Below are positions 12,401 through 32,083 of a DNA stretch of 64,000 bases, piece after piece. Made by a program: the position numbers and the translations under genes. The notes under the pieces were generated by a model. That model saw only the letters and a program-made list of their open reading frames with translations. It made no database searches and had not been told where the DNA came from. This stretch comes from Entophlyctis helioformis (taxonomy: Eukaryota > Chytridiomycota > Chytridiomycetes > Chytridiales > Chytriomycetaceae): assembly GCA_025526915.1 (NCBI GenBank), contig JAHLKH010000008.1, forward strand, positions 62,001-126,000. Reading direction: 5' to 3'. The stretch's first letter is position 1; each line of letters opens with the position of its first letter.

Positions 12401-12959
12401 ACTTTCATGAACAACGTTTGCAACAGCATCCACAACCAGCAAATGCATCGAGTCTGTCCACACTGAGTACATCAGATTCGATGTCTTGTCCGTGTCGATT
12501 GCTTCTGGGTCAGCACCGTCTGCTTGTCTATTAAGCCGTCCCACTCGCTGAATCTCCACAGGCGATGGTGGCATGGCTGGCACGCACCCTCAACAGTCGC
12601 CGATTCCAGTCACTTGGCCACTGCAACGTCGCCTCAAAACAACGACTACATTCGCTCAGATTGATGCACACAACAATATACTGCTGGTGCCTTGAAATGA
12701 ACAACAAAGTTCAAATCGTTGGCCAGTGGACGGTCAACACCACTGCGGAGTTCTCACGGACAGCCAGGTCGTCTTTGCTGGCAACCACTGTTCCTTGCCC
12801 AGCTATCCAAAGTCAACCAAGATCTCAACACAAGTCGGCTCACTTCAATCCACAAAACAGAGAAAACACAACAAGCAACAGACAAGACTGTATGACAACA
12901 GCAAAATCAAGCAGCAAAGAATGCACCAATCTCCATCCGTTGAAGACCAGATCAGGTTC
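9435..12959. other. Gene-poor, A+T-richer interval with weak open frames only
   Basis: No gene is supported across about 3.5 kb. Composition is visibly less G+C rich than the flanks. The longer open frames are mostly on the minus strand: 9605-9931, 10317-10589, 11203-11433 (FKAAMKAIQSSPALRQ), 11492-11734 and 11685-12044 (DIQLDAYLVYNLGYGRKH, with a sequon in NVTHGT). They share no frame, lack convincing splice joins and match no family I know. They could be exons of a fast-evolving minus-strand gene or the decayed continuation of the module gene at 13.2 kb. Confidence 0.4.
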
Positions 12960-13242
12960 CGCTTGCAGAGACCGGCGGCTGCCGTGATGCTTTCTTCGCA
13001 CTCGAGATCTTTGGCTTGGCATGTTTGTTTATGAGGAGGAGATCGTCATTTTGGGTTTGGCGTTTGTGCGTGCTACAATTGTTGCTGGTGAGTCAATCAC
13101 GGACGTTGGTGGACGCTGAGCCTTGTCTTCACATAAGGTGCCGACTTTGGAGTGTCAAATGCGATGGCTGGGATCGTCTCCATTTTTGAGATGGTCGCCG
13201 AGACAAACGTTAACAACAGCAACTTGAATCTCAATGTAATCT
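12960..13242 (-). pseudogene. Decayed third copy of the long C-terminal repeat of module gene 1
   Basis: Just past the stop of the 13243-15423 gene, read leftwards, sequence related to that gene's own C-terminal repeat persists. METIPAIAFDTPKSAP (about 13190-13140) parallels LETIPAVAFATPKSRS upstream. HAKPKISSAKKASRQPPVS (about 13020-12965) parallels LKPKISKVKKAKPSVPTS. Stops and frame changes lie between the two blocks. This is most simply a third roughly 80-residue repeat lost from the protein by a stop or frameshift. Confidence 0.65.
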
Positions 13243-15423
13243 TTATCCTTTCGAATTCACAGCAAATACAAAGGTAAAGTCTGAAGTGGGGACCGATGGC
13301 TTAGCTTTCTTGACCTTGGAGATCTTTGGCTTGAGAGTCGGGCGGGCTGCGACTGCTACCATCGAATCGATCACGGGCGGCGGTGGTCGCAGAGCCTCAT
13401 CTTCGTAGATGACGCGCTGCTCTTCGTTGGAACGCGACTTTGGAGTGGCAAATGCGACGGCTGGGATCGTCTCCAAGATAGGGACGGCCGCCAAGGCAAC
13501 TGCAAAGTTGAAGCCGGAGACGGGGACCGTTGTCTGCGCTTGCCATTGCGCTTTCTTGGTCGTCGATGCTCGTGGCTTGGCAATCTTGCGTTTCTCGGTG
13601 ATTGGTTCTGGCGAATTAACGGCGGACGGTGGTGGATAGTTCGGAATGTCTTCACAGTTGATGGCATCCGACCTTGGAGCAGCAAATGCGATGGCTGGGA
13701 TCATCTCCAAGATGGGGACGGCCGCCGAGGCAAGTGCAACCCCAAAGTTGGCGGTCGGGATATCCTCAGGCAGTGGGATGGACGCGGCGAGATACAGAAG
13801 CTCGTCGTCGCTTGTCGGGATATCCTCAGGCAGTGGAATGGACGCGGCGAGAAGAAGTAGCTCGGTGTCAGCAGCAATGGTGTCGTTGGGAAACCTGCAT
13901 GCTCTCGCGACAGCGGCCATTTCGGCGCTCTTGACCCGTTCTACGACACTCTGAGAGTGGGTGATCAGGCCTTGAGCTGCGGAAACAGCTGCGTCTTGAG
14001 GAGCAGGTGCAAGGTCAGTGGATGTGGCTGATGATTCAGCGGTGGAAGTCAAGTGGCCATGGACAACAGGCGGCGAAACGAGGATGGCAGTGGTGTCGGG
14101 AACAGCAGCATTGGGCTTGTCATCAGAAGGCAGACTCGACACAACACTAGGGATATCGTTGGTGGGCGGAATGGACGCAGCGAGGAGGACGAGATCGATC
14201 TCAGCCGTCAAAACGTCCTCGGGGAGCGGAGTGGACGCGGCGAGCAACAGAAGCTCGGCATTGTCTGTCTTGGTGTCCTCGGGGAGTGGAATGGACGCAG
14301 CGAGCAGCAAGAGATCGGTGTCATCTGCCATGACATCATCGGGGAGCGGAATGGACGCAGCGAGGAGGACGAGATCGATCTCGTCTGTCTTGGGATCCTC
14401 GGGGAGTGGAATGGACGCGGCGAGCAACAGAAGCTTGGTGTCGGGGGTCGGGGTATGATTGACAGTCTTGACGGTGTTGGACCATGTCACGACGATGCTT
14501 ATAGGCCCGTCTATCCATTGGATAGGGATGGCAATGACAGCAGGAGCGGGATGGTCGGCCGGTCGATCACTGCTTGCATCCATTCGGCAGGCTTCAAGCT
14601 CAAGCCGCTTGGCCTTGCGTGCCAGGCCGACGAGAACCACAAGCTGGATGATGACGATGGTCAAAAGCAGCAGCGTGGCGACGCCGTGCATGGACAAGCT
14701 TGAGGAGGACTCGTTGATTGCGTCGCGTGCGATGACAAGAGTGTCCAGCAGCCTCGACTTGATACGGAACGCCATGCGAGCCATGCCGGTTTGCCAGCAC
14801 CGCTGATCGAGATAAGCGAGGCATGGGCGGATGGTGTCAATGGTGGCAGAGGATGGTGGTGGTAGGCGGCAGGAAGCAGCAACAGCAGCATGCAGAAACA
14901 AGCTCACCATGGCATGCACCACTCCGGGATGCTCCGAGGACTGGCTGAACTGTGCGAGACCCGTGCGAGAGAAGGCGATGGCGTTGCGGACGACGACGGG
15001 ATCCGTGCTGGTGAGGACGAGATCCGTGCTGCCGACGACGAGATCAGAGCGGAAGATGACCAGATCGGTGGGAGCGGAGCTTGGGACGACGAGAGCGTGG
15101 AATTGCTCAGCGGGCGGAGGCAGCACCTGGCTGTCGTTGCGCACGTGCTGCACCGGTCCGAGTGGGTCCAGGACGACGGGGCCGAAGCTGCTTGTGTCGC
15201 CGTGGCAGCCGATAGGCTCGTCGAAGGACGGCTGGCTGGCGTTGGCGACAACAGCGGGAGCGGGGCGGGCGAGGCCGAGAGCGAGGCGGACGATGACAGG
15301 AGCGCTGAAGTTGAAGCCTTGGTAGGCGCTGATGGTTGGTTGGAACCGCCAGACTGGCGGGAGCGAGACCGGAAATAGTGCCATGAGCACTAGGGCGAAG
15401 ACGGCCACGAGCCCTGGAAGCAT
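13243..15423 (-). CDS. Module gene 1, copy A: single-pass membrane protein with repeat-rich tail
   Basis: I recognise no family. The 726-codon frame has no intron. Residues 1-22 form a signal peptide (LVAVFALVLMALFPVSLPP). An ectodomain of about 220 residues has four N-glycosylation sequons (N38, N61, N96, N237) and four cysteines. A membrane helix lies at about 248-267 (LLLLTIVIIQLVVLVGL), followed by a basic stop-transfer stretch (ARKAKRLELE). The tail carries seven 20-residue units of the form LLLLAASIPLPED, five together and two later. It then has two repeats of about 80 residues (VPILEMIPAIAF, VPILETIPAVAF) ending in Lys-rich KISKVKKAK. ATG 15423 was chosen because a TATA box sits 58 bases upstream and the signal peptide starts there, although the frame stays open to 15999. 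The inverted partner is at 30474-31986. Confidence 0.7.
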   Translation of the reverse strand: MLPGLVAVFALVLMALFPVSLPPVWRFQPTISAYQGFNFSAPVIVRLALGLARPAPAVVANASQPSFDEPIGCHGDTSSFGPVVLDPLGPVQHVRNDSQVLPPPAEQFHALVVPSSAPTDLVIFRSDLVVGSTDLVLTSTDPVVVRNAIAFSRTGLAQFSQSSEHPGVVHAMVSLFLHAAVAASCRLPPPSSATIDTIRPCLAYLDQRCWQTGMARMAFRIKSRLLDTLVIARDAINESSSSLSMHGVATLLLLTIVIIQLVVLVGLARKAKRLELEACRMDASSDRPADHPAPAVIAIPIQWIDGPISIVVTWSNTVKTVNHTPTPDTKLLLLAASIPLPEDPKTDEIDLVLLAASIPLPDDVMADDTDLLLLAASIPLPEDTKTDNAELLLLAASTPLPEDVLTAEIDLVLLAASIPPTNDIPSVVSSLPSDDKPNAAVPDTTAILVSPPVVHGHLTSTAESSATSTDLAPAPQDAAVSAAQGLITHSQSVVERVKSAEMAAVARACRFPNDTIAADTELLLLAASIPLPEDIPTSDDELLYLAASIPLPEDIPTANFGVALASAAVPILEMIPAIAFAAPRSDAINCEDIPNYPPPSAVNSPEPITEKRKIAKPRASTTKKAQWQAQTTVPVSGFNFAVALAAVPILETIPAVAFATPKSRSNEEQRVIYEDEALRPPPPVIDSMVAVAARPTLKPKISKVKKAKPSVPTSDFTFVFAVNSKG
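13771..13860 (-). repeat. Two 60-base tandem units in module gene 1 copy A
   Basis: Two adjacent units exactly 60 bases apart each encode the LAASIPLPED core. They are separated from the five-unit block at 14160-14450 by about 300 bases of unique tail. Confidence 0.85.
14160..14450 (-). repeat. Five 60-base tandem units (VNTR-like) in module gene 1 copy A
   Basis: On the plus strand the core ggaatggacgc recurs every 60 bases, near 14167, 14229, 14289, 14349 and 14409. Each unit encodes LLLLAASIPLPED plus a variable linker. The inverted partner near 31460-31520 keeps only one unit, so copy number has changed in frame since duplication. Confidence 0.9.
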
Positions 15424-15480
15424 GCTGTGGTGATAGTGACTTTCGAACGGGCGGAGGCAAGCACGGGGTGCGTCTCCCGG

Positions 15481-15487
15481 CTTTATA
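15481..15487 (-). promoter_or_regulatory. TATA box of module gene 1, copy A
   Basis: The minus strand reads TATAAAG 58 bases upstream of ATG 15423. The same element stands at the same distance in the inverted copy (30410-30416), supporting both the promoter and the chosen start. Confidence 0.75.
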
Positions 15488-15732
15488 GTCTGTGTGCGCC
15501 TTGCCGCCGCCTTGCCAGATTCGGCGGGGGATCTGCTCTGACCCTGTAAATCTGAGGCGGAGGTTGGACGCCAGGACAGCGCTCGGCGAATTCTGGCTTT
15601 GTTGCAATGCCGTCCAATCACACAAACTCCGACCGTGTGTTGGACGCGTTTGCCCCCGTCGGTGGCGCCACGGTGGGTGGCTGAATGTTGCGTACTGTGC
15701 TGCGTGCTGCGGGCGATGTGCTGGCATGACAC

Positions 15733-17162
15733 ATGATGGCCAGCACGATTGCCAGCACGATTCATGCAAGCCTTGTCGGAAGCACGGCTCCCTCTTCCGA
15801 CAACCGAGGCGGCCCTGCCACGACCGCCGAGATCGCCACGCTCACGACTGCCAAGAGCACGATGGCCGGACAGTCCGAGACGGCCATGGAGACGAGGGGC
15901 TGCGGACTCCCACCAGACCCGAGCAACACTGTCCAGCTCCTGTGCAACACGTCGCTGTCGCAGGTCGGCATGCCCAACTGCCCGCGCTGCCTCGCTCAAG
16001 ATACAAACCGTCGGGCAGTGCCCACAGCCTGCAAGCCGTGGATGTGCACATCTGCATCACAGAAGCCATTCAGTTGATCTGTGATGGACACGGCCGAGCA
16101 GCGCAACAATGGCATGCACAATGGCATCATGGAGCGCATGAGAATGAACCTCTTGAATGCTCGCACTGTCTGTCTTTGTCGGGTTTCTGCCATCTGATGC
16201 TCACAATCCACTTCTCCCAAAGAACCAGCATCGCCAGCCTTGGGGCTATCAGCAACCATTGGGACGATCCAGCTTGCTTTCAGTTCAAGCCACGAGCTGT
16301 GCATTGCGGGTCTCCTCCTTCCTGGCCTCTGCTTGGAAAGAGGACGCCTTCCAACACTGGCAGAGACTCACGAGGCAATGAATGTGGCTCATGTCATAGC
16401 CAAGGACGCAGTCATCGCCAACGCAGAGAGCGATGCCACGACTCTCGATCTGGATGATGGTCAGACCAAGCAGTTGATCGAGGCTGTGATCAATGCTCTG
16501 CCTTCTGCGAGTCCACGCAAAGTGATCTGGCTGGGCAGCATCCGGGCCGGCGGGATGAGTGTTTCTCAATTGACTCTCGACTGCCGCACGAACCGCCCAG
16601 GGTCTCGTCCTTGCAGTCTATGCCGTGCTTGGATGCTTTGGTGCACGCATTGATCCTGGCCGCTGCCATGCTCTGCACTCTTGACCAGATCGGCTCACAG
16701 AGCCTGTCTCTTGTGTCAGGCTCAACAATCGACTTGCCAAGGCTGCGGACGTCCACGAGGCCATTGCATTCAAGACAGCAAAGCATGCCGATCCAAACGC
16801 CACAGCAGGCGAGAGAGCCTTTTGGGATCTGCGCTGCCGTGCGTACTGCTCGCCATTCCTGAATGCACGGGTACGGTTTCTCTGTTTCTGGATGCCCATT
16901 GGCATGGCCGCCATGCTGCTTGATCGCCTGCTGATCACACTGGATGGCATGGCATGGCATGGCATTCCACAGAAGGTCAAGGCCAAGCGGTTTGCCATGC
17001 GCAGCAACAGCATGTCAATTCGCGGAAACGCTCTTGAGGGCATCATGAAGCTGGCAGGATCGACCACTGGAGAGCGCGCATCTGCTGCGTCTCAAGGCCG
17101 CTGTGACAAGCCAACAGAGAAGGGCATTCCCGTTGTGTGGGCATTTGGCATCGACTTTACAG
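15733..17162 (+). CDS. Module gene 2, copy A: unknown protein, exon model uncertain
   Basis: This gene is divergent from gene 1 across 309 bases. No family is recognised and the exon structure is not solved. Candidate first exons are MMASTIASTIHASLV from 15733 (containing QVGMPNCPRCLAQDTN) and MDTAEQRNNGMHNG from 16085. The next conserved block is ALGLSATIGTIQLAFSSSH through LDLDDGQTKQLIEAVINALP and KVIWLGSIRAGG (about 16230-16555). Its frame has the most synonymous differences between copies. Two small introns, one plausibly starting GTGTTT near 16558, would lead to LAKAADVHEAIAFKTAKH, FLCFWMPIGMAAMLLDRLL and KVKAKRFAMRSNSMS, ending near IPVVWAFGIDFTG. The copy-specific indels (12 and 18 bases) preserve frame. 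In copy A the reading frame runs on past the duplication edge without an obvious stop, so its C-terminus may be chimeric. Confidence 0.45.
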
Positions 17163-18333
17163 GCAGTGGTGGTGGTTTCTGGCCAAGCATATGTACTTAT
17201 GCGTTTGTTCTACAGGGGTTGACCGGTGCACCACTTTGTTTTCCTAGGCAGTCCAGATCGGCCATCTGCAAATCCAAACATTCGGTTCACACGCGAACCA
17301 ATCTCCACGGCCGACGAGCATGTTCCCACGACGACAGCAGCAGCAACAAGGACAAAGACGTCTGGCCTGGCTGTCGCAACTTGACCCATCAACTCACAAG
17401 TCGGCCTTCCCGGAGACTTTGCAATCCAGAAACACCAGCAGCCGCTTCGCCAGAGCAACAGACGTCAAAGGTAAGCACCGACCAGCCAAACGGCACGCAC
17501 CTTCCCGCACACGGCAGTTGTCAATCTGGTCGTGCCACCAGTCATCCAGCATGCACCAGCAGCCCCTCCTATGCTCCTCAGCCGTACGATCGTCTTCTTG
17601 CATCCATCCATCCCTCCATCCATCCACCCATCCATCCACCCATGCACGCACAGCAATCGCTCGACATGCCTTGCTCGCTGGCTTGCTTGTTTGGGCAACT
17701 CGGCTGGCATTGCCGGTTGCTGTCTCCGAGCCCGCTCACCATCATCTTCTCCCATGCATGGCATTCCCCCCTGCCCGCCACAACTGGACTGCATTGCGTT
17801 GCCAGCCCCTGGCGGCCGTGGCACGGCTGCCGCTGCACTCGTTCCCCTTGCCTTGCACTGCACTGCATGGCGCAGGCCCAGCCTTGCGTGGTGATGCGGC
17901 GATGTGGTGATGTGGTGATGCATAGCGCCTTGTCTGCCAAGCCCTGTTTGCCTCCACGGCACCGTCGGATGGCTGGGCTCGGACAGGTTGCTATCACATC
18001 GGGCACTGCCACGACGCGCGTTGGGCACGAGGCCATGAAACCTCTCCACGAGTTTTTCAACAGCTGCGCACCCACGGCGAAAGCACAGCACCTCCACCGG
18101 CCTGCCCGATCCACCCCCCAGCCCCGCTTCCTTTCTCTGGCGGAATGGCATTCCCTTTCTGAACTAACCCGCTTATTCATCCATCCTTTTCAACAACCAG
18201 TCTTCCGACCACACTCCTCATCAAGCCGTCCTGCTGCATCGCACGCCGTCACAGCTCCACACAGCCTCAGGATTTCACAGAGTAGTAGCACCAGGCACCA
18301 CCGTCCCCTGACCAACCCCCGTCATCTCCAGCC
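17163..18333. other. Intergenic region upstream of the kinase; low complexity
   Basis: Past the edge of arm A there is no convincing gene. A plus-strand frame stays open from 16892 to 18337, but its translation is compositionally biased (His/Pro/Ser rich) and includes a microsatellite. The last few hundred bases are probably the promoter and 5' leader of the kinase starting at 18334. Confidence 0.5.
17601..17646 (+). repeat. CATC tetranucleotide microsatellite
   Basis: Imperfect tandem CATC/CACC units lie in the intergenic region before the kinase gene. Confidence 0.9.
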
Positions 18334-20584
<2,251 letters not shown>

Positions 20585-21003
20585 ATGTTGCCCGTGCAAC
20601 CGTGGCACCGTGGCACCGTGGCACCGTGGCAACAGCGGCGACGGCGCGCACGCAGTGGGATTGGAGAGCAAGAGCAGAGATGGCAAGAGCGGCGTGATTT
20701 ACTTACAGGCGAATGGACAACAAGATGGAGGGGGGACACTTTGTTGATTGGGCACGACCAAAACAGACTGGCGAGACGATGACGGAGAATGAATCTTTGG
20801 CGTGAACCACTATCGATCGGCTGCGAAGCAAGTCACTTTAAGCTGCAGGCACCGAATGGAAGCCCATGAGCAGAGCACTTTGAATGTCAAGGGTGACTTG
20901 CAGTAAAACGAATGCAAGTGCCACTGAATGAAGATAATACGAGGCAATAGATATACATTGAGATGCGGGTACAGAATAAGATAAGAGAAGGCGCAGCGAA
21001 AAT
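20585..21003. other. Convergent intergenic region between kinase and spermidine synthase
   Basis: These are the 3' ends of two convergent genes. It contains four tandem copies of the 8-base unit accgtggc (about 20599-20633). No open frame of interest and no RNA gene was seen. Confidence 0.6.
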
Positions 21004-22537
21004 CTAGATGCCGAGCCCGTTGCGCGCAAACTGGGGGAGGACAAAGGCCGCTGCGTGCACCTCAGAGTTGTAGTACTTGAGCTTTGCACGCTCAAACTCC
21101 TTGGGGAAGCGGCGGGCAGGCGTTTTGAGGTCACGGCCAGCCTCGTTGCAGCAAAGAATGTATCCAATCTGGCCGCTGGGGTATGTGGGAATGGCGCCCC
21201 AGGCGTACTCGACGACGGGATAGATCTTGCGTGAGCTGTCAAGAACGCCCTTGATGAGAGGGAGGTGGAGCCATTGGCATTCGCCTGAACGGGCCACGTG
21301 GTAATGTGCACAGGAGAGAGGCAAGCAGAAAGTCAGTCCCAATATTCGAGATGGCACAAGATGATGATGATCATGCTGCGCATCAGATCGAGCGACGGGT
21401 GCTGAGCGTGTTGTGTGCTCAGAAGGTTTTATGATTCTATGTTATGCTTTCTTCAGCATCGGCCGTGAGGCTTAAGCGTGGTGCATGCATTGTACGGTCA
21501 TCAGGGCAGACAACACGGCGCACCCCGTCGCATCTGTGCAGGTAGCAACGAAAAGACGGCGAGTGGAGCTTACCCTGTGTGCAAATGATGCCGCCGGGAG
21601 TGAGCGACTGTCTCATCAGGTCGTAAAAGGTCTCGCCAAAGAGAGCCTCGGCAGGACCCACGGGATCCGACGAGTCGGTGATGATCACATCGTACGAGCC
21701 TGGGTGGTTCTTGAGGTACTCGAAGCCGTCGCCGACATGGACATTGACCTTGGGGTGCTGGAAGCCGGCAGCCATGGCGGGCAAGAACTGCTTCGAGACC
21801 TTGATGACAGCCTCGTCAATCTCGACAAGAGTGACCTGCTCGACGCAGTCGTGCTTCACAACCTCGCGGAGCACGCCGCCATCGCCGCCACCAATCACAA
21901 GGACCTTGATATCGAAGGCGATGCAGAGGAGGCAGACGATCGGGTCAGCACGTGATGGGGGAGATTGGCGGCAAGTGAGACGGGTAGGTGGATATGCGAG
22001 CGTGTGTTCAGAGCTCTGGGTAAAGAGAACGCTTGTAGTATCACCACAGACAAGTCTGACTGGGGCGGCAAAGCAGTCATCACAACACACGGCTCTATCG
22101 CACTGCAAGATGACGGCACAAAGAAGAAAAAAGAAAGCGGGGAACCATACCTTGCGAGGATTGGGATGGGCATTCAGCGGGAGGTGGGCAATCATCTCCT
22201 GGTAGGCAAACTCGTCGCGCTCGGTGGCCTGGATGACGCCGTCGAGGACAAGCACGTTGCCGTGGTTGGTCGACTCGAACACAAGGACGTCCTGGTAGAG
22301 CGACTTTTCATGGTGCAGGATCTCCTTGACCTGGAGCGACATGGCTGCAAAGGGGGGACGCAGGCAGAACCGAGGCAGGCGCAAGCATGTCAGCGACTGC
22401 AAAGAACAGCGTTGCGCTGAGCCGTAGCGCACGGCACGCAGCACTACGGCAGTTGGCTCTTACCCTGTCCTGGCCACAACGTCGTGGTCTCGCGGAACCA
22501 GCCGTCGTTGATGTTGGGGTGGGTGAGCGAAGCCATG
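21004..22537 (-). CDS. SPE3: Spermidine synthase
   Basis: This enzyme transfers aminopropyl from decarboxylated S-adenosylmethionine to putrescine, making spermidine, in the cytosol. Start [16 protein letters not shown] splices (donor GTAAGA, acceptor TTGCAG) to [20 protein letters not shown]. Signature blocks follow: [74 protein letters not shown] and GGIICTQG. The last exon reads [18 protein letters not shown] and ends ARNGLGI with TAG at 21004-21006. The glycine-rich AdoMet loop and the Asp pairs are intact. An intron of about 250 bases splits NPRKV from IKVLVIGGG. The start lies 131 bases from the divergent alpha/beta hydrolase gene. Confidence 0.96.
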
Positions 22538-22595
22538 TGAGACGAACCTGGCGAATGCACACAAGAAAATCTCGGTTTAAAAATGCATTGCAAGT

Positions 22596-22601
22596 CACGT
22601 G
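22596..22601. promoter_or_regulatory. CACGTG E-box in the SPE3/hydrolase divergent promoter
   Basis: The context is gTCACGTGAtc, an extended palindrome like that bound by Cbf1/USF-type bHLH factors. It sits 58 bases from the SPE3 start and 67 from the hydrolase start. Binding is inferred. Confidence 0.5.
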
Positions 22602-22668
22602 ATCACTGCGCAGCAGTTGTGGCTTTACTGAAGTTGCTCGCGAAATAGCCCTGAGCATCTCACCTGCG

Positions 22669-23940
22669 ATGCAACGGGCCGTGTCCAACAGCCTCCACCT
22701 TAAGGAGAGGGACGTGACTGTCCCGTCAACAGACGGCGTCACCCTCAAAGCACGCTTCTTTGTGGGCGACAGCAAGCGCCGCTCAACGTAACACCATGAC
22801 AGCATGCAGTCGAGTCGACTCTCGCTTCTCTCACTGACGAACAGCGACAGGTGTTTTGTCCTGGCGCATCCATACGGGCCGGTATGCCAGCGCGTTGACC
22901 GTCTGCTTCTGCGCCCACCTGTTGACACGCTTGTGCTGGCAACGTCAGCTTGGAGGCAACTACGACAACAACGTCGTCGAGGCTTTGTTTGCCAACTTTG
23001 CGTCCATGGGGTACTCAACCATCCGGTTCAACTTCAGAGGCGTCGGCGGATCGACTGGCCGCACGACATTCCGAGGCATTGGCGAGATCGAGGATGTGGT
23101 CGCCGTCTGCAAGTACCTGATGAGTCGCGACATTATGGACAAGCCGTCGCGGATTGTGTTGTGTGGCTATTCCTATGGGTCCGTCGCAGCTGGAGCGGCT
23201 GCGTGTGACGTGCCTGAAGTCGCGGCCGTCATCAGCATCTCGTATCCGGCAGGTGTCCTGTGGGCACTGACTCTGGGCAATCAGCGCAAACATCTCGACA
23301 GTCTGCAGTCGACGCCACCAGACGTTCTCAAGCTGTTCATCTCCGGCACTCGCGACAACTTTACCTCAGAGTCCAGCTTCAGCCAATTTGTCGCCACAAT
23401 GCCAGGTGATAATGGCACGGCTGGGTCGTTGTGCTCGTGCAATGCCATGCACAACTGACAAGATCGGCACCGATAGAGCCAAAAGCTGTCGTTGTGGTGC
23501 CAGATGCTGACCATTTTTGGGCCGGGGCCGAGTCGACCCTGACGGGCCACATTAACCAATGGGTCGCCAAGTCGCTGAGACCTCATCTGAACGAAAAGGG
23601 ATCTGTCAACAGCCTGTCGATTGGTGGCAGCAGTTCGCGCACTCAGCGGTCGGCTGGATCTACATCGAGTCTGCCCGCGACTGCAACCGTGGACTACAGT
23701 CATGGCTTCACAAAGACGACATCGCCATTGAGCGAGACTCCAATAGCTCCAAGTGCAGACTCTGGATCGCGTCCATTGCGACCAGGATCGCCAACACGAC
23801 CGCTGCCACAGCCCCCATCCATAAGCACACTGGCGTCGCGTTCTGTTGACAACCTTTCCGAAACTCGGACCAGCCCTGTCAAGGGTCCTCGAGAAATGTC
23901 TCCTGCGCGCGGATCGCTGGACAACCTTGGCAAGACATGA
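22669..23940 (+). CDS. Alpha/beta hydrolase with Ser/Pro-rich C-terminal tail
   Basis: This is a predicted serine hydrolase of unknown substrate. The start MQRAVSNSLHLKERDVTVPS leads over a short intron (GTAACA...CGACAG) to CFVLAHPYGP, then GGNYDNNVVEALFANFASMG and RFNFRGVGGSTG. The nucleophile elbow is GYSYGS, the acid is probably in LFISGTRDNF, and the histidine in VPDADHFWAG, which completes the triad. About 120 Ser/Thr/Pro-rich, probably disordered residues follow, ending SLDNLGKT. The core resembles small COG2945-type dienelactone-hydrolase-like proteins; the long tail is not typical of them. Short introns occur before GGNYDNN and between the acid and histidine regions. No signal peptide or membrane segment. 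Confidence 0.75.
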
Positions 23941-24024
23941 CGAGACATACGCATGGCTTTTGACGCGACGAGCAGTCTGCCGTTGGCAAAGTTTATTGCC
24001 CCTTTCACGACCGTGCTGCCCAGT

Positions 24025-27000
24025 CTAGTCGACCTGCAAATGAAGCGTTCAGCCAAGTGTCAGTCTTGGAAAAAACATGGTGTACTGTCCACCAGACTAA
24101 CCTTGATGGCAGAGTAAATCTTGCGGACAAAGTAAAAGGCAGCAACGAAACCAGCAGTTCCCTGGATTTACAGTGTGCAACTGTACATGTTAGAACGGTG
24201 CCCGAAATTTGCAAGGCATTCACACAACTGACCGTAAGGATACTGAACAGGACACTCATGACCAATGTCCATCTGCGGCAAAAAGCACCAGTTAGAAACA
24301 GATTTGGGGGCAATAAACGCAACGATCAACAGCAAGCCAATGTACCCAAAGTAGAGAGTAGTTGCAGCAGGGCCGTGCACATCAAGGCGGTTGACGTAGT
24401 AGAAGATTCCGTACAGGAACATGTAAATGCCGGCCGACGCGCTCGACAAAAACGAGCGCCACCACCTGGCGAACAAGAGATGAGGCATGAGTAATAAAGA
24501 ACAACAGTGCTTGACGTTCAGAGCCATGGCTAGGCCAAGCACGCATTACCAGTGGTAGTTTTCAGCGCAAAGCTGAAAGTAGCAGATCAGAATCGACACG
24601 AGCGAGCAGGTCAAGCCAAGAATCAAGAGTACGAGCATCAAAAAGCCAAAGACGTAGTACACGCGGTTGGACCAGATGCTGCTCATGATAAAGTTGAGCT
24701 CGATAAACACAGCACCAAACGGCAGGATACCGCCAAGCAGGATGCTCGGGAGAAGTTTGAGGTATGCAGGCTGAGAGAAGAAGGGCTGTTGTCAGCAACA
24801 GCGAATTGATAAGAAGCAAGCATTTTCGGCAAGTAGACAATCTGAATCCACCTGTTCGGGGACCTGACGAGGGATCTGGTTTGTTCTGACAGGAACTTCC
24901 ATTTTCTGTGGATGCAATTCGAGTCAATCACACTTGCCGGGACACGATGCTGGGGCAATATCATGAATTGCAGAGGTGACCATCGACTTACCGCCTTTTT
25001 GAAGCCAAAATACGCGCCAATCAGGCAAAGGGGGGCAGAGACCAGGAGCCACATGGCGAGCAGGAAAAACATGGTTGAAAATGGAACAGCGCCAGACGAC
25101 TCGGCACCAATAAGGAAGAAGTTGAGCACGACAAAGATGGCAAAGATGATTCTGCCAATGCATGCGGGATGGTCAGCCATGGCTAGGATTGACAGAAAAC
25201 GAGAGTACGCCACACAGCCGACATACCCAGGAAGCAAGAACGCGGCCAAGAGGACATTTTGACGCCATGCCTCTCCGCCAAAGAACTTGTAGAAGCGGGC
25301 CGAGGTGTAGCCAGCGACTGAGCCAAAGAGAACATAAAAGACCAGCATGACAGTCGTGAGAGATCCACGGCTTGAGGGCGACAGGAAGCCGAGCGCAGCG
25401 AAACCTGGGTTGCACTGACTCTGTAAGCATAGGTGAAAGGCAAGGCAGTGCAACGCCATGTCATGAATTGCCATGAGCTGCAAAAAGCATTACCAACTGT
25501 GACGGCCGACATGAGAGCCAGCTGCGCGCCATTGCCAATAAGCACCGACAGAAGCATGCGGAGGGGTGGAGAGCGGAAGACGTCTCCGTGGACGATCTTC
25601 CAGCCAAACTCTTCCTGGACATCATCCTGTTGATCAAGAAGGGCATTTAGTCATGATTATGCATAAAGGTGGCATGCGGATCCATACGGATGTGGCGCAT
25701 TGGAGCGGCTCTCACCTGCGCCTCAATCTCATTGTAGCGGGCAATGTCTCTGCGCAACGCACGCAGAAGAATCATCAGTACCATGCCAGTGAGAAGGAAG
25801 ACGACGGTTGCCGAGTTGATGATGCTGTGCATACAAGGATAAGGGTTAGCAATGGTTCATGGCGTCGAAGAGCGGACATGGAATGGCACTTGCCTGAACC
25901 AATGGATTTTCGAGTCTGCAGTGTACAAGTAGTGATCCCAGCGAGTTCCCCACTGCGTAGTCGATGGCTGTGGACGATCATGGCAAGCAAAGCACATATT
26001 AGTCGTGTAGCCCAAAAGACGTCTAGAGACGAGATGGAGGCCTAAAATGACGTCGAAAAGGATACGCACAACCCAATAGACGCTGTAAGAGAACGTGACA
26101 TGGGTGGACTCGTTGGGATCGTCTTTGAGAACCATCAGGCTCTTTGGCGGGCGCTGCTTGCAGTCGTTTTGCTTATCCTTACTCTTGATCGAGACTGGTG
26201 CGACGCGGACGCCCACAACGCGATGCTTGTCCTTGGTTTCCGCATGGTACGAAATGTAAATGTCATAGTGGTTGTTGAACACGGGCTTGTTTTCCTGTGT
26301 CACCAGCGACCAACCAGAGCAGCGTGTCAGCAGCAAGCGGACGCCAGTCAACCTGCGCCATGCATCAACGATCTGACCGTTGTCAGCGAGCCGAGAGGAA
26401 ATCCAATGGTGGAATAGTGGTCCGTCTCGTCATTGAGCTTGCTGGCGGCAGGCAGACCGTCCACGACCCTGGCGGCCAGGAGAAGATTCGGTTGGCGATT
26501 TTCAGAGTAAGCCGACAGCATGGCGATGGACGACGGGATCATGTTAAAGGCTGCCAGGTGATGCAAGCATGCCACTTGCCAGTTGAGCATGTATCTCTCC
26601 ATGATGGCCTCGTTGATGAATGCGGCATCTTCACTCGGGATGGTGGGCGAGCACAGTGTCTGGCACGTCACGTTTTCGGCCATGCGCAGCTCAAAAGGCG
26701 AGGTGAACAGACGGTCGCCAAAGAGGATTGCGCCAAGCGACTCGCTCTGCGCCTTGGGGCCGTCTGCCGGCGTGCAAAAGTGGAAGCGAGAGAAGTAGTA
26801 GTCGTATGGGATGACCTGGCAGCATGTGTTGGCATCAGAGCAGGAGGCGGCCGAGTCAGCTGGGAAGGAGGACACACACAGCGCCGGGCACATGCACGTA
26901 TACACGCAACTGTTTCTGGAGACGACAGCGTGTTGACCAGGAGCTCGAGCTTGGCCCCCTTGGCGTAGTCACGGGGAGCAACGCCAGGCAGGTAGAAGCA

Positions 27001-27072
27001 ATGGGCTCCCGGCAGGAGCAGCGACAGCAGCAGCGGCAGCAGTACACCAGCCAGCGACGCCACAGATTGCAT
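24025..27072 (-). CDS. TM9 superfamily member (nonaspanin, EMP70 family)
   Basis: Nonaspanins are nine-pass endosome/Golgi proteins involved in sorting, adhesion and metal homeostasis. The product starts with a signal peptide (MQSVASLAGVLLPLLLSLLL), then FYLPGVAPRDYAKGAKLELL and VIPYDYYFSRFHFC, both hallmark positions. The luminal domain includes LGAILFGDRLFTSPFEL. The membrane half contains YTSARFYKFFGGEAWRQN, VLLAAFLLPG and SAPLCLIGAYFGFKK. The C-terminus RKIYSAIK is spliced to a three-codon last exon (Val-Asp-stop), giving the classical KVD ending that acts as a Golgi-retention signal. At least eight introns. The complete TM9 layout and length fit the family, and no break was noticed. Confidence 0.92.
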
Positions 27073-27166
27073 GGTGTTGGTGGTGTTGTTGGCAAACAGA
27101 AAAGCAAACAAACGCAGGCCGTTGTGATGGAGATGTGGCGGTTCATTGGGGGGATTACACAGATGC

Positions 27167-28623
27167 TTAGACGCTAGCGAGGATAGCGGGCTCCTTGTAC
27201 TCCTTGGCAGCGCCGGGAACAACCTTGCTGCCCTTGTCCTCAGACGAGCCCTCGCCGTGGAGCTCGAGGAGCTTGCCAAGGTCGAACTTGGGTGCCTTGA
27301 GGATCTTGACCTTGCGGACGAAGCAGTTCTGGAGAGGGTAAATGCCCTGGCAGGCCTTCTCGATCTCCTTGCCAATCACCTCGGGGGCGAGCTTGCGGAC
27401 AAACTCCTTGAGGTCGCACGTCGTAGCCTCCTTGGTGGCGATCTCGAACATCTTCTTGCGGATGGCGCGGATCTGGGCGCTGGTGGCGTACGTGGTCTTG
27501 CGGAGCTGGTTCTTGCGGCGCTGGGTGAAGGCGATGGTGAAGATGCGGACAAAGTAGCCGTCGGTGGTCTTGACATCCACGTGGGCCTCAATGAGCGACT
27601 GCCACTTCTTGACGAGCGAGCGGAGCTTGTCCGTGGTGAGGTCAATGCCGTGGAAGTTGGTCAGGCAGTTCTTGCCGGACACCTCCTGGATCTGGAGCTT
27701 GACCTTGCGGAAGCCGTCCTCCATGTTGTTGGAGAGATCGGCAAGGGAGACCTCAAGAACACGGCCCTTGAGGTAGTCCTTGGCGTTCTCTGTCGGGCGA
27801 GATTCGCATCACATCATCGGTCAGCCCAGAATGCCAGAGCTGAACACGCCACAAGCATGACACCTACTAAGACCCTGGGTGCGGTTGACGAGGGTCTTGC
27901 CGGCGTTGCGGACCTCGAAGAACGAGGGGGCCTTGATGTCGTACCAGTCCTTGCGGGTGAAGGGGTCGACGCTGTGCATGCACAAACGGCACGATTAGTC
28001 TGCCACACACTCATCATGGACACACTTGGCTGGGTTGGGCTGGCTGGCTGGTTGGCTGGTTGGCTGGGCGAGCCGTGCAAGGCTGCTGAATAACGTCCTG
28101 CATAGGTGCTGCCGTCTTGGCCATGGTGTGTGTTGTTGGCCGTATGGCGTCTGCCGGTTTGGCTGAGAGAATCGAGTCGCTGGTCCAGTCAACGAATCGC
28201 ACAAGTCCATCGTGCTGTGCTGTGGAAGGCATCCCATCCATCCCATCCTCTCCAGTGGCGGGAGCGACGAGGATGGATGTGGATGGGTGCTGCTATGCTG
28301 CTGCTGCTGCTGTATGCGACCATCCATCCTTGTGCATCCCCTCCCAGCTGATGTTGGACCGGCAATTGGTCACGGCCTGCCTGCCTGCCTGCCAAGCCCA
28401 TTCGAGTCGATTCCCGCAGTGCAACTCACGTCTTCTTCTTGAGACCCTTCTTGCCCTTAGAGAGACGCCTGTGGGTGGCGTTCAACGACGGGAAAGAGAC
28501 AGGCAGCCGCACGGGTAGCGACGGTAGCAGAAGCCAATGTCAGTAACTGAGCGCATGCCGGCAGGCATCCACAAGGTTGGGCGAGACGGCAGACGCAACG
28601 CACTTGTTCTTGCCAACAGCCAT
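27167..28623 (-). CDS. RPS1: 40S ribosomal protein S1 (S3Ae/eS1)
   Basis: This is a structural protein of the small ribosomal subunit near the mRNA exit. Start MAVGKNK is split by an intron from [12 protein letters not shown]; then [94 protein letters not shown] and [20 protein letters not shown]. It ends EPAILASV with TAA at 27167-27169. Three introns interrupt the first 60 residues, the usual pattern for ribosomal protein genes where introns crowd the 5' end. Two of them contain simple repeats (CTG near 28295, TGGC near 28045). It sits directly beside arm B of the inverted duplication. Confidence 0.97.
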
Positions 28624-28726
28624 GTTTGATGAGAGTGCGAGGGAAAGCGAGGGGCAGGCAATTCTTGTCGTGGTCCATCCGGATTTGAAAAATGGTTGAA
28701 TTCGTGTTCAGATTTTCGTTGGACGA

Positions 28727-30164
28727 TTACCAAGAATTTTGGAAAACCAGCAGGCCGCCTTGGCCTGTAAAGTCGATGCCAAATGCCCACACAACGGGAA
28801 TGTCCTTCTCTGTTGGCTTGTCACAGCGGCCTTGAGATGCAGCAGATGCGCGCTCTCCAGTGGTCGAGCCTGCCAGCTTCATGATGCCCTCAAGAGCGTT
28901 TCCGCGAATTGACATGCTGTTGCTGCGCTTGGTGAACCGCTTGGCCTTGACCTTCTGTGGAATGCCATGCCATGCCATGCCATCCAGTGTGATCAGCAGG
29001 CGATCAAGCAGCATGGCGGCCATGCCAATGGGCATCCAGAAACAGAGAAACCGTACCCGTGCATTCAGGAATGGCGTGCAGTACGCCAAGCAGCGCAGAT
29101 CCCAAAAGGCTCTCTCGCCTGCTGTGGCGTTTGGATCGGCATGCTTTGCTGTCTTGAATGCAATGGCCTCGTGGACGTCCGCAGCCTTGGCAAGTCGATT
29201 GTTGAGCCTGACACAAGAGACAGGCTCTGTGAGCCGATCTGGTCAAGAGTGCAGAGCATGGCAGCGGCCAGGATCAATGCGTGCACCAAAGCATCCAAGC
29301 ACGGCATAGACTGCAAGGACGGGACCCTGGGCGGTTCGTGCGGCAGTCGAGAGTCAATTGAGAAACACTCATCCCGCCGGCCCGGATGCTGCCCAGCCAG
29401 ATCACTTTGCGTGGACTCGCAGAAGGCAGAGCATTGATCACAGCCTCGATCAACTGCTTGGTCTGACCATCATCCAGATCGAGAGTCGTGGCATCGCTCT
29501 CTGCTTTGGCGATGACATGAGCCACATTCATTGCTTCGTGAGTCTCTGCCGGCGTTGGAAGGCGTCCTCTTTCCAAGCAGAGGCCAGGAAGGAGGAGATC
29601 CGCAATGCACAGCTCGTGGCTTGGACTGAAAGCAAGTTGGATCGTCCCAATGGTTGCTGATAGCCCCAAGGCTGGCAATGCTGGTTCTTGGGGAGAAGTG
29701 GATTGTGAGCATCAGATGGCAGAAACCCGACAAAGACAGACAGTGCGAGCATTCAAGAGGTTCATTCTCATGCGCTCCATGATGCCATTGTGCATGCCAT
29801 TGTTGCGCTGCTCGGCCGTGTCCATCACAGATCAACTGAATGGCTTCTGTGATGCAGATGTGCACATCCACGGCTTGCAGGCTGTGGGCACTGCCCGACG
29901 GTTTGTATCTTGAGCGAGGCAGCGCGGGCAGTTGGGCATGCCGACCTGCGACAGCGACGTGTTGCACAGGAGCTGGACAGTGTTGCTCGGGTCTGGTGGG
30001 AGTCCGCAGCCCCTCGCCTCCATGGCCGTCTCGGACTGTCCGGCCATCGTGCTCTTGGCAGTCGTGAGCGTGGCGATCTCGGCGGTCGTGGCAGGGCCGC
30101 CTCGGTTGTCGGAAGAGGGAGCCGTGCTTCCGACAAGGCTTGCATGAATCGTGCTGGCCATCAT
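28727..30164 (-). CDS. Module gene 2, copy B: unknown protein, exon model uncertain
   Basis: This is the inverted copy of the gene at 15733-17162 and keeps the same set of conserved frames. Candidate starts are MMASTIHASLV at 30164 (lacking one 4-residue tandem unit) and MDTAEQ at 29825. The middle block reads VIAKAESD where copy A has six extra residues. The C-terminal exon reads FLCFWMPIGMAAMLLDRLL, KVKAKRFTKRSNSMSIRG and IPVVWAFGIDFTGQGGLL, and stops at TAA 28727-28729. That stop is missing in copy A, so copy B probably shows the original C-terminus. Scattered amino-acid differences are about as frequent as silent ones. No recognised domain; one hydrophobic stretch (WMPIGMAAMLLDRLLITL) could be a membrane or amphipathic helix. 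Confidence 0.45.
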
Positions 30165-31711
30165 GTGTCATGCCAGCACATCGCCCGCAGCACGCAGCAC
30201 AGTACGCAACATTCAGCCACCCACCGTGGCGCCACCGACGGGGGCAAACGCGTCCAACACACGGTCGGAGTTTGTGTGATTGGACGGCATTGCAACAAAG
30301 CCAGAATTCGCCGAGCGCTGTCCTGGCGTCCAACCTCCGCCCCAAATTTACAGGGTCAGAGCAGATCCCCCGCCGAATCTGGCAAGGCGGCGGCAAGGCG
30401 CACACAGACTATAAAGCCGGGAGACGCACCCCGTGCTTGCCTCCGCCCGTTCGAAAGTCACTATCACAACAGCATGCTCCCCGGGCTCGTGGCGTTCCTC
30501 GCGATGCTTCTGATGGCGTTGCTGCCGGCCTCGCTCCCGCCAGCCTGGCGGTTCCAAGCAACCATCAGCGCCAACCAAGGCTTCAACTTCAGCGCTCCCG
30601 TCATCGTCCGCCTCGCTCTCGGCCTCGCCCGCCCCGCTCCCGCCGTTGTCGCCAACGCCAGCCAGCCGTCCTTCGACGAGCCTATCGGCTGCCACGGCGA
30701 CACAAGCAGCTTCGGCCCCGTCGTCCTGGACCCACTCGGACCGGTGCAGCACGTGCGCAACGACAGCCAGGTGCTGCCTCCGCCAGCTGAGCAATTCCAC
30801 GCTCTCGTCGTCCCAAGCTCCGCTCCCACCGATCTGGTCGTCTTCCGCTCTGATCTCGCCCTCACCAGCAAGGATCCCGTCCTCACCAGCAAGGATCCCG
30901 TCGTCGTCCGCCACGCCATCGCCTTCTCCCGCACGGGTCTCGCTCAGTACAGCCAGTCCTCGGAGCATCCCGGAGTGGTGCATGCCATGGTGAGCTTGTT
31001 TCTGCATGCTGCTGTTGCTGCTTCCTGCCGCCTACCACCACCATCCTCTGCCACCATTGACACCATCCGCCCATGCCTCGCTTGCTTATCTCGATCAGCG
31101 GTGCTGGCAAACCGGCATGGCTCGCATGGCGTTCCGTATCAAGTCAAGGCTGCTGGACACCCTTGTCATCGCACGCGACGCAATCAACGAGTCCTCCTCA
31201 AGCTTGTCCATGCACGGCGTCGCCACGCTGCTGCTTCTGACCATCGTCATCATCCAGCTTGTGGTTCTCGTCGGCCTGGCACGCAAGGCCAAGCGGCTTG
31301 AGCTTGAAGTCTGCCGAATGGATGCAAGCAGTGATCGACCGGCCGACCATCCCGCTCCTGCTGTCATTGCCATCCCTATCCAATGGATAGACGGGCCTAC
31401 AAGCATCGTCGTGACATGGTCCAACACCGTCAAGACTGTCAATCCAACCCCGACCCCCGACACTGAGCTTCTGTTGCTCGCCGCGTCCATCTCAATCCCT
31501 GATGATACCATGGCTGATGACAAGCCCTTTGCTGTTGGTCATACTACCACTGCCATCCTCGTCTCGTCTCCTGCCGCGAACGATCACCTTGCGCCTGCTC
31601 CTCAAGACGCAGCTGTTTCCGCAGCTCAAGACCTGATCACCCACTCTCAGAGTGTCGTAGAACGGGCCAAGAGCGCCGAAATGGCCGTTGTCGCGAGAGC
31701 ACGCAGGTTTC
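28766..31711 (-). repeat. Inverted duplication, arm B
   Basis: Reverse-complement partner of 13886-17162. The arms are separated by about 11.6 kb carrying five unrelated housekeeping genes. Arm B has a single 60-base tail unit instead of several and a 4-base insertion near 31080-31087. Confidence 0.9.
30410..30416 (+). promoter_or_regulatory. TATA box of module gene 1, copy B
   Basis: TATAAAG stands 58 bases before ATG 30474, in the same place as in copy A. Confidence 0.75.
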
Positions 31712-31986
31712 CTGGCCGCACTGGCGAGCAGCTGGCGATCAGCCATTTGATTGCATACTGCCCAAGTCGACTCGAGCTTGACGTCAGATGGTTGGTCAAG
31801 GATGGCGGCACAAGTCGCAACCAAGTCCACGTCTCATTCTTCGAACCATCCGTTGCAAAACGCCTCATCCGGCAAGCAGTGAAGACGGACATCCCGGACG
31901 CGGTCCTCGATGCAACTGTGAAGACGCCGTCCAACCCGACTGTCAAGAAGAACATCCGTCGTGGCGGCAAGGCCAAGAAGCGCTGA
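30474..31986 (+). pseudogene. Module gene 1, copy B: frameshifted before the membrane segment
   Basis: This copy has the same promoter and start as copy A, with a signal peptide (LVAFLAMLLMALLPASLPP) and ectodomain. Near 31080 it carries four extra bases (GCTTGCTT where copy A has GCTT). Translation from 30474 therefore leaves frame after IRPCLA and stops at 31301 after 275 codons, losing the membrane helix and tail. The displaced frame continues intact to TGA 31986: membrane helix, one LLLLAAS unit, then a different C-terminus (LDVRWLVKDGGTSRNQVHV, ending Lys/Arg rich RRGGKAKKR). It may be a broken gene, a source of a secreted ectodomain, or a slipped-strand switch; the sequence alone cannot tell. 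The tail after VVARARRFP has no counterpart in copy A. Confidence 0.65.
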
Positions 31987-32083
31987 CCTTTCTTTGTGTT
32001 GATGTTTTTCTCAATATATCTTTTGTGTCGACTCAGCCAAACTTTTTTTGACACCTTCGCATCTGTCACGACAACGGACGACA

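What the first reader, a model, noticed from the sequence alone, without database searches (positions are those of the whole stretch)
13886..31711. Inverted duplication of an undescribed two-gene module flanking five housekeeping genes
Arms 13886-17162 and 28766-31711 are near-identical reverse complements. Each holds a TATA-driven membrane-protein gene and a divergent partner gene; neither matches a family I know. The pairing, shared promoter and retention of both genes in both arms suggest a functional unit, possibly one of several in the genome. Recombination between the arms could invert the 11.6 kb between them.
Basis: partly seen in the sequence, partly recalled or inferred. Interest (0 to 1): 0.75.

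Follow-up and report, generated by a model that had tools for sequence, protein, structure and literature searches.

The report
Orphan membrane gene beside Fanzor transposon wreck
The two mirror-image blocks are two of about fifteen copies, in a chytrid fungus, of an unknown membrane-protein gene joined head-to-head to the broken remains of a Fanzor transposon gene; they are real, but the 'partner gene' is mostly transposon wreckage rather than half of a working two-gene system.

Summary
The inverted repeat is real: 13889-17164 against 28763-31712, 96.1% over 2,778 bp plus 127 bp, 11.6 kb apart. It lies in the chytrid Entophlyctis helioformis. The unit is a dispersed repeat: a promoter 25-mer was found at 15 sites, each in a copy of this unit, none with a mismatch. 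The 'partner gene' does match a known family: it is a decayed Fanzor (eukaryotic TnpB-like) gene without the RuvC-I aspartate and the zinc-finger/RuvC-III (TNB) part. Fanzor pieces lie on that side in 12 of 15 copies, with varying breakpoints. The genome has at least 150 TNB segments.

The membrane gene is an orphan, intact in arm 1 (726 codons) and frameshifted in arm 2. Its C-terminal domain is under purifying selection (dN/dS 0.16-0.37 in 13 of 15 pairs). A second contig, C357, carries the arm 2 locus with a roughly 8-kb Fanzor element that the window lacks, which supports arm 2 and suggests recent Fanzor mobility.

Best reading: copies of an orphan gene plus transposon remnant, spread by duplication and gene conversion. 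Whether the gene travels as Fanzor cargo is open. No sign of inversion was found.

The parts
13889..17164 (+). arm 1 of the inverted repeat
28763..31712 (-). arm 2 of the inverted repeat
28724..32038 (-). full unit at arm 2: Fanzor 3'-end remnant at 28724; gene-side end ...GTCGACTCAGCC at about 32038, a point where arm 2, the C8:32.6k copy and the C61 group part into different flanks
13243..15423 (-). arm 1 membrane-protein gene, 726 codons, no stop inside; five hydrophobic stretches, of which 1-27 and 240-272 are shared with the C61 copy; seven AAS[IT] repeat cores, mostly 20 residues apart
15482..15487 (-). TATAAA, 64 nt upstream of the ATG; present in 10 of the 11 copies that keep the gene start (C57 reads TATAAG)
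30474..31986 (+). arm 2 membrane-protein gene; frame broken by an extra GCTT at about 31080-31087; C-terminus of the C357/C61 type, stop at 31984-31986
15497..15735 (.). conserved intergenic block between the divergent genes, with an imperfect palindrome GTCCAAYCACAC...GTGTGTTGGAC
   Evidence: 15 copies aligned
15610..15634 (+). 25-mer CCGTCCAAYCACACAAACTCCGACC; 15 sites found in the genome with up to 2 mismatches allowed, all with 0, all in copies of this unit
15736..15963 (+). exon 1 of the partner gene model (public protein P0004, BC831DRAFT_509170); no constraint in the modelled frame
16161..16677 (+). decayed Fanzor middle sequence (67-75% nt to parts of intact copies), inside the intron of the gene model
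16742..16870 (+). Fanzor-derived exon 2 (91-98% to 20 other Fanzor loci)
16973..17161 (+). Fanzor-derived exon 3 up to '...VVWAFGIDFT'; TNB and RuvC-III are missing downstream
28764..30164 (-). partner (Fanzor-derived) remnant of arm 2
28724..28742 (-). Fanzor 3'-terminal sequence CCAAAATTCTTGGTAATCG, about 100 nt upstream of the RPS3A start codon (28623, minus strand)

Best explanation
Each arm is a copy of a dispersed composite repeat: an orphan membrane-protein gene, read from a conserved divergent promoter block, joined head-to-head to the rearranged and internally deleted remains of a Fanzor (RNA-guided nuclease) transposon gene. Shown: the repeat family (15 sites); the Fanzor identity of the partner; its loss of catalytic parts in the arms; long open membrane frames in 5 of the 11 copies that keep the start; selection on the membrane C-terminus; and a roughly 8-kb Fanzor insertion on contig C357 that the window lacks at the same place. 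Inferred: the ancestor carried a Fanzor with at least its C-terminal half next to the membrane gene; copies spread by duplication of the composite (arm 2 has discrete ends, one a Fanzor 3' end) and were homogenised by gene conversion, more on the promoter/Fanzor side; the membrane protein is the selected part, and the Fanzor piece is a passenger or at most a chimeric transcript. The two arms are two family members lying 11.6 kb apart in opposite orientation, not the ends of one invertible device.
For: Repeat family. Fanzor identity: TNB domain in an intact family member; 150 of 150 scored candidates (205 in the first look) over the cut-off in the genome; the published D-X(125,275)-[TS][TS]XX-C4-X(5,50)-RD signature met in copy L009 with spacing 188 (signature from passages of PMC3627910); terminal inverted repeats agreeing at 19 of 23 positions. 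Loss in the arms: no RuvC-I or TNB match in either arm at E 1e-3, and none in the whole window below E 0.29. Breakpoints at 15750, 15813, 15868, 15909 and 16066. Selection: C-terminus dN/dS 0.16-0.37 in 13 of 15 pairs of six copies; N-terminus 0.61-0.72 in 7 of 10 pairs, the other 3 without synonymous change. Gradient C357 against C61: Fanzor exons 92%, promoter block 95%, N-terminus 91%, C-terminus 77%. Arm 2 seen on a second contig.
Against: In 3 of 15 copies (C13, C60:54.8k, C359) no Fanzor sequence was found in the about 1.5 kb read beyond the breakpoint, so the pairing is not universal. No target-site duplication is visible at arm 2 or at the C357 insertion, so transposition is not demonstrated. 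Splice sites next to exons 1-3 are kept in the copies that retain those exon ends, and exons 2+3 are open in all five arm-group copies tested, with pN/pS 0.55 to other Fanzors and 0.71 among themselves, so a translated chimeric partner is not excluded. Exon 1 read in another frame gives pN/pS 0.67. By sequence no solved Fanzor structure is matched. The gradient could come from one recombination joining a young front half to old C-termini. That C357 is a second haplotype, not a second locus, is inferred.
Confidence: 0.72

Rival explanations
1. The composite is itself a mobile element: a Fanzor-type transposon that captured the membrane gene (as Pack-MULEs and Helitrons capture genes) and moved it as cargo, later losing most of the Fanzor gene.
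For: Arm 2's unit has two discrete ends: a Fanzor 3' terminus at 28724 and a gene-side end ...GTCGACTCARCC that is followed by three different flanks in arm 2, the C8:32.6k copy and the C61 group. By inspection the units of arm 2 and C8:32.6k end 20-50 nt before a start codon.
Against: No Fanzor 5' terminal repeat within 5 substitutions anywhere in the window; no target-site duplication seen by eye; among the 15 units, in the stretches read, only arm 2 and its C357 counterpart show the Fanzor 3' end (flanks are short in some); none of the 20 Fanzor loci L009-L028 carries the gene's promoter 25-mer.
Confidence: 0.2
2. A functional two-gene system: the partner is a domesticated Fanzor-derived protein that works with the membrane protein under a shared promoter.
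For: Conserved intergenic block in 15 aligned copies, conserved splice sites and open exons 2+3, a public gene model for arm 1's partner.
Against: Exon 1 unconstrained in the modelled frame (pN/pS 1.58); the breakpoint cuts into exon 1 in six copies that keep the promoter block (C7, C57, C324, C359, C60a, C199b); RuvC-I and TNB absent in the arms.
Confidence: 0.06
3. The arms are an assembly artefact (one locus assembled twice).
For: Draft assembly of 482 contigs; some loci occur on two near-identical contigs (C57/C324 98.7%, C13/C420 100% over 782 bp).
Against: The arms differ at about 4% and have distinct flanks; contig C357 supports arm 2's place independently. Arm 1's place rests on contig C8 alone.
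Confidence: 0.02

Closest known systems
Fanzor1-bearing DNA transposons, SPu-1 of the chytrid Spizellomyces punctatus (PMC3627910, PMC10432273; passages read)
   Same: TnpB-like protein with D, C4 zinc finger and RD; terminal inverted repeats; partial copies; conserved non-coding 3' end before the right terminus
   Different: The one element seen at both ends here is about 8 kb (C357; about 1.7 kb of it not read) and the genes have introns, against about 2.1 kb with a single ORF; at least 150 TNB segments here against 42 Fanzor loci plus 134 'ghost' elements there; no target-site duplication shown here
5'-truncated Fanzor1 Helitron families CRe-1/2/3 of Chlamydomonas (PMC3627910; passages read)
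   Same: Internal deletions with 3'-side sequence kept, as in C7, C57, C324, C60b and arm 2
   Different: Helitron features were not tested; the inverted terminal repeats speak against a Helitron (inference)
Gene-capturing transposons: Pack-MULEs, Helitrons (search listing and abstract starts only)
   Same: Host-like gene sequence joined to transposon remains and dispersed
   Different: No copy with both transposon ends around the membrane gene was found

Membership tests
Fanzor/TnpB family (the dispersed family to which the partner belongs) | C4 zinc finger / TNB domain PF07282 | tested here: met
   L009:4453-5073 E 2.8e-10, 40.6 bits, cut-off 26.3; 150 of 150 scored candidates, of 205 first-look ones, over the cut-off in the genome
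Fanzor/TnpB family (the dispersed family to which the partner belongs) | D-X(125,275)-[TS][TS]XX-C4-X(5,50)-RD | tested here: met
   Copy L009, four exon pieces joined: D to TS 188 residues, CPQC...CTDC, then RD
Fanzor/TnpB family (the dispersed family to which the partner belongs) | Sequence match to a solved Fanzor or TnpB structure | tested here: not met
   Best PDB hits E 0.52 (single sequence) and E 0.41 (profile); RNA-guided nucleases among them align only over the zinc-finger part. Fanzor1 against another TnpB-like branch is therefore undecided
Intact Fanzor nuclease (the arms themselves) | RuvC-I aspartate | tested here: not met
   No match in either arm or the window
Intact Fanzor nuclease (the arms themselves) | TNB zinc finger and RuvC-III | tested here: not met
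   No match in either arm; homology to intact copies stops at 17164 / 28763, apart from a last 20-30 nt of the element in arm 2
Fanzor element (OMEGA system) | Guide RNA from the element's 3' end | tested here: inconclusive
   20 3' ends share a conserved region of about 190 nt before unique flanks; 45 predicted pairs, 2 with compensatory change; region absent from the arms; no RNA data
Fanzor1 DNA transposon | Terminal inverted repeats and target-site duplication | tested here: inconclusive
   Repeats agree at 19 of 23 positions; the one insertion with both flanks (C357) shows lost and added bases and no duplication

The most novel reading that the evidence does not exclude
The orphan membrane gene is a selected cargo of a Fanzor lineage: nuclease cuts near the shared promoter/Fanzor block drive repeated gene conversion, so that one promoter-plus-N-terminus spreads between loci and is joined to different C-termini (three types seen), a transposon nuclease thereby diversifying a membrane protein family.
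Probability: 0.12. Interest if true: 0.8.

Novelty: new variant of a known kind. Interest (0 to 1): 0.42.

Why it matters
It corrects a 'new two-gene module' to a transposon-derived composite. It also points to a genome with a large Fanzor load (at least 150 zinc-finger segments) and to a place where a roughly 8-kb Fanzor element is present on one contig and absent from another. One of the papers states that the biological roles of Fanzors remain unknown (PMC10432273, passage); if C357 and C8 are alleles, a with/without pair in a fungus that can be cultured would make that question testable.

Tried and rejected
Rfam over 13000-32500: no match at gathering thresholds. PHROGs: a transposase family for the Fanzor tail (E 6.4e-10), none for the three membrane-gene frames given. 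NCBIfam: TnpB family at E 5.4e-7 but 29 bits against a cut-off of 100 for the joined Fanzor exons, none for P0004; the membrane protein was not given to it. AlphaFold of the membrane C-terminus from 6 sequences: mean pLDDT 45, not used, no fold search made. Protein searches for the membrane gene in 5.8 billion proteins: none at E <= 0.001 among 7,997 candidates scored, none at E <= 0.01 among 429 for the C-terminal region; the database may be thin in chytrids. C199 as second haplotype of arm 1: not supported, arm 1's outer flanks have no long second copy. Transposase in the Fanzor elements: no Pfam family over its cut-off in 7 upstream frames. A query of 19 aa was mis-set and of no use; one alignment request failed on frame; one script failed on a file name (redone). 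The Fisher test printed used site totals that I estimated and is not relied on. The C-terminal dN/dS line was on misaligned columns and is replaced. Literature: four searches; of the 30, 10, 0 and 8 papers listed, no title concerns Fanzor in Entophlyctis; most subscription papers and preprints are not held.
Full report
OBSERVATION. The window is bases 62001-126000 of contig C8 in a 29.57-Mb, 482-contig genome. Three of the five protein records matching the repeat family are named Entophlyctis helioformis and lie on contigs whose lengths equal C8 (276,756), C18 (206,856) and C5 (287,210); the other two bear the same name. It is a chytrid fungus. The inverted repeat is real: five main blocks at 95-98%, 96.1% over 2,778 bp and 127 bp, far beyond chance. 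Between the arms lie genes with kinase, spermidine synthase, alpha/beta hydrolase, EMP70 and S3Ae domains. 'RPS3A' and 'UTP18-like' are names from recall laid on the S3Ae domain and on a WD40 match.

A DISPERSED FAMILY. Arm 1 finds 74 matches in its own genome with 40 of 235 candidates scored: a set of long copies and 28 rows that start with only the last 500 bp. The long copies share the membrane gene. A 25-mer of the promoter block was found at 15 sites, all without mismatch though two were allowed, none for the reversed control, and all in copies of this unit: C7, C8 (three), C13, C57, C58, C60 (two: 54.8k = C60a, 84.3k = C60b), C61, C199 (two), C324, C357, C359. A C-terminal fragment also ends contig C420. 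Some of these are near-identical and may be alleles or assembly overlaps: C57/C324 98.7% over 4.65 kb, C13/C420 identical over 782 bp, C199a/b 99.9% over 3.2 kb. Independent loci are fewer than 15.

THE PARTNER IS A FANZOR REMNANT. The 500-bp copies continue, past the point where the arms stop, into a coding sequence with a TNB zinc finger (PF07282, E 2.8e-10, 40.6 bits, cut-off 26.3). In the genome 150 of 150 scored candidates (205 in the first look) pass that cut-off; alleles may be counted twice. In copy L009 the joined exon pieces carry the aspartate of GIDWG, 188 residues on TSQMCPQC, a second cysteine pair and HRD, which meets the signature given for Fanzor and TnpB in PMC3627910 (passages). 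By sequence no solved Fanzor structure is matched (best E 0.52 and 0.41), so Fanzor1 against another TnpB-like branch was not decided. The arms hold a decayed middle part (within 16161-16677, 67-75% to intact copies), skip the segment with the RuvC-I aspartate, and then follow intact copies at about 92-94% to 17164 in arm 1 and 28763 in arm 2. No RuvC-I or TNB match exists in either arm. Arm 2 keeps a last fragment, CCAAAATTCTTGGTAATCG, the Fanzor 3' end also found, with up to 3 substitutions, at 22 other termini (21 in L009-L028 and the C357 element) and in the C357 module. A public gene model, P0004, describes arm 1's partner as exon 1 plus two Fanzor exons and a short tail (exons located).

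Across the 15 units, Fanzor sequence lies on the divergent side in 12: arm 1, arm 2, C8:32.6k, C357, C199a, C61, C58 and C60b (internal exons; C60b also TNB), C199b (TNB about 2.1 kb away), and C57, C324 and C7 (degenerate TNB directly at the breakpoint). It was not found in C13, C359 and C60a within the about 1.5 kb read; C60a has a Fanzor piece on the other side, beyond the membrane gene's end. The breakpoints differ (15750, 15813, 15868, 15909, 16066), as expected for separate internal deletions. Exon 1 in the modelled frame has pN/pS 1.58 over 10 pairs of five copies (other frames 0.67 and 1.04); exons 2+3 have 0.46 among 13 other Fanzor copies (other frames 0.89 and 1.19), 0.55 between arm group and these, 0.71 within the arm group (13 of 20 loci used, those with length changes dropped).

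THE MEMBRANE GENE. Arm 1 encodes 726 residues with five hydrophobic stretches, of which 1-27 and 240-272 are shared with C61, four N-glycosylation sequons before 240, and a tail with AAS[IT] repeats. The start region is found in 11 of 15 units, and the frame is long and open in five: arm 1 726, C357 647, C199a and b 706 each, C61 691; it is broken in arm 2, C8:32.6k, C58, C57, C324 and C7. C13, C60a, C60b and C359 keep the intergenic block but show no match of 40 residues or more to this N-terminus. The C-terminal 110 codons of six copies (arm 2, C357, C61, C58, C13, C420) give dN/dS 0.16-0.37 in 13 of 15 pairs; C61/C58 differ at silent sites only and C13/C420 are identical; C60b, with 33 codons only, gives 0.27-0.42. 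The N-terminus (319-323 codons) gives 0.61-0.72 in 7 of 10 pairs, the other 3 having no silent change. So the C-terminus at least has been under selection. No relative was found and the structure model is not usable. C-termini come in three types: arm 2/C357, the related C61/C13 type (72% identical residues), and arm 1/C199, different by inspection.

SIGNS OF EXCHANGE BETWEEN COPIES. C357 against C61 is 92% in the Fanzor exon region, 95% in the promoter block, 91% in the N-terminus and 77% in the C-terminus; C58 shows the same trend; C60b gives 92, 93 and 78% and C13 93 and 79% for the parts they keep. C357, which sits at the arm 2 locus, is closer to arm 1 (99.1%) than to arm 2 (96.1%). Gene conversion is the simplest reading but was not tested formally.

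A FANZOR INSERTION PRESENT ON ONE CONTIG. C357 begins with the RPS3A start (97%), continues through the module, then holds a Fanzor element from 3945 to about 11903, then sequence of the UTP18-like gene from 11930 (99%), 47 nt before its start codon. Positions 9601-11299 of C357 were not read. The window joins module and gene directly. Relative to the window, C357 lacks about 16 bases and has about 26 bases of filler at one side, and the element lacks its last bases on the other, so this was not a clean cut-and-paste event. The element's ends are inverted repeats agreeing at 19 of 23 positions (the 3' end taken from other copies). This shows the arm 2 location twice and suggests Fanzor movement after the two copies separated; that C357 is a second haplotype is inferred.

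MECHANISM, SHOWN AND INFERRED. Shown: family, Fanzor remnants, open and broken frames, selection on the C-terminus, identity gradient, insertion difference. Inferred: a Fanzor gene lay head-to-head with the membrane gene in the ancestor; duplicates spread, with discrete ends at arm 2; conversion homogenised the shared side. Unresolved: whether the spread used Fanzor transposition. Among the units read, only arm 2 and its C357 counterpart show a Fanzor 3' end (some flanks are short, and C60b's stretch ends about 430 bases past its TNB). The arms could in principle recombine and invert 11.6 kb, but nothing here shows that they do.

LITERATURE. PMC10432273 (passages): 42 Fanzor loci and 134 ghost elements in S. 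punctatus. PMC10711439 (passages): some Fanzor transposons reach hundreds of copies. PMC3627910 (passages): signature, SPu-1, truncated families. High copy number is therefore not new in itself; the composite with an orphan membrane gene was not met in the four searches made.

Mended against the calls: dN/dS ranges now name their pairs; frame controls added; the element on C357 is no longer called full-length; the 3'-end claim was tested on the later loci and held.

Noticed in passing
genome G000, e.g. L009, L012-L015, L017, L022, L026, L028: At least 150 TNB segments; against L009 the C-terminal halves of many Fanzor copies are about 90% identical while the stretch upstream is about 74%, as if the front halves were exchanged or diversified.
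   Followed up: partly
L051 and L054 (C357:4600-9600, 11300-12000): A Fanzor element of about 8 kb with inverted ends, beside the UTP18-like gene on C357 but not in the window.
   Followed up: partly
3' ends in L009-L028 (alignment A4): Conserved non-coding region of about 190 nt directly before unique flanks, a candidate guide-RNA region; one subfamily has an extra tail of about 48 nt.
   Followed up: partly
window 8573-13886: Left flank of arm 1 duplicated on C199 at 97%, starting within 10 bp of a Fanzor tail on C199; a part (about 9819-11317) also on C117 at 94%.
   Followed up: partly
window 13142, 13435, 13669: Three copies of a 65-bp repeat (80-83% to the first); the latter two lie in arm 1's C-terminal coding part, a type otherwise seen in C199.
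   Followed up: no
L048, L049: The 60-bp (20-residue) repeat of the membrane gene's tail is strongly expanded in the C60a copy and present in many offsets at the start of C359.
   Followed up: no
window 17597-17646 and 19961-20086: Low-complexity repeats in the right flank of arm 1 shared with many contigs.
   Followed up: no
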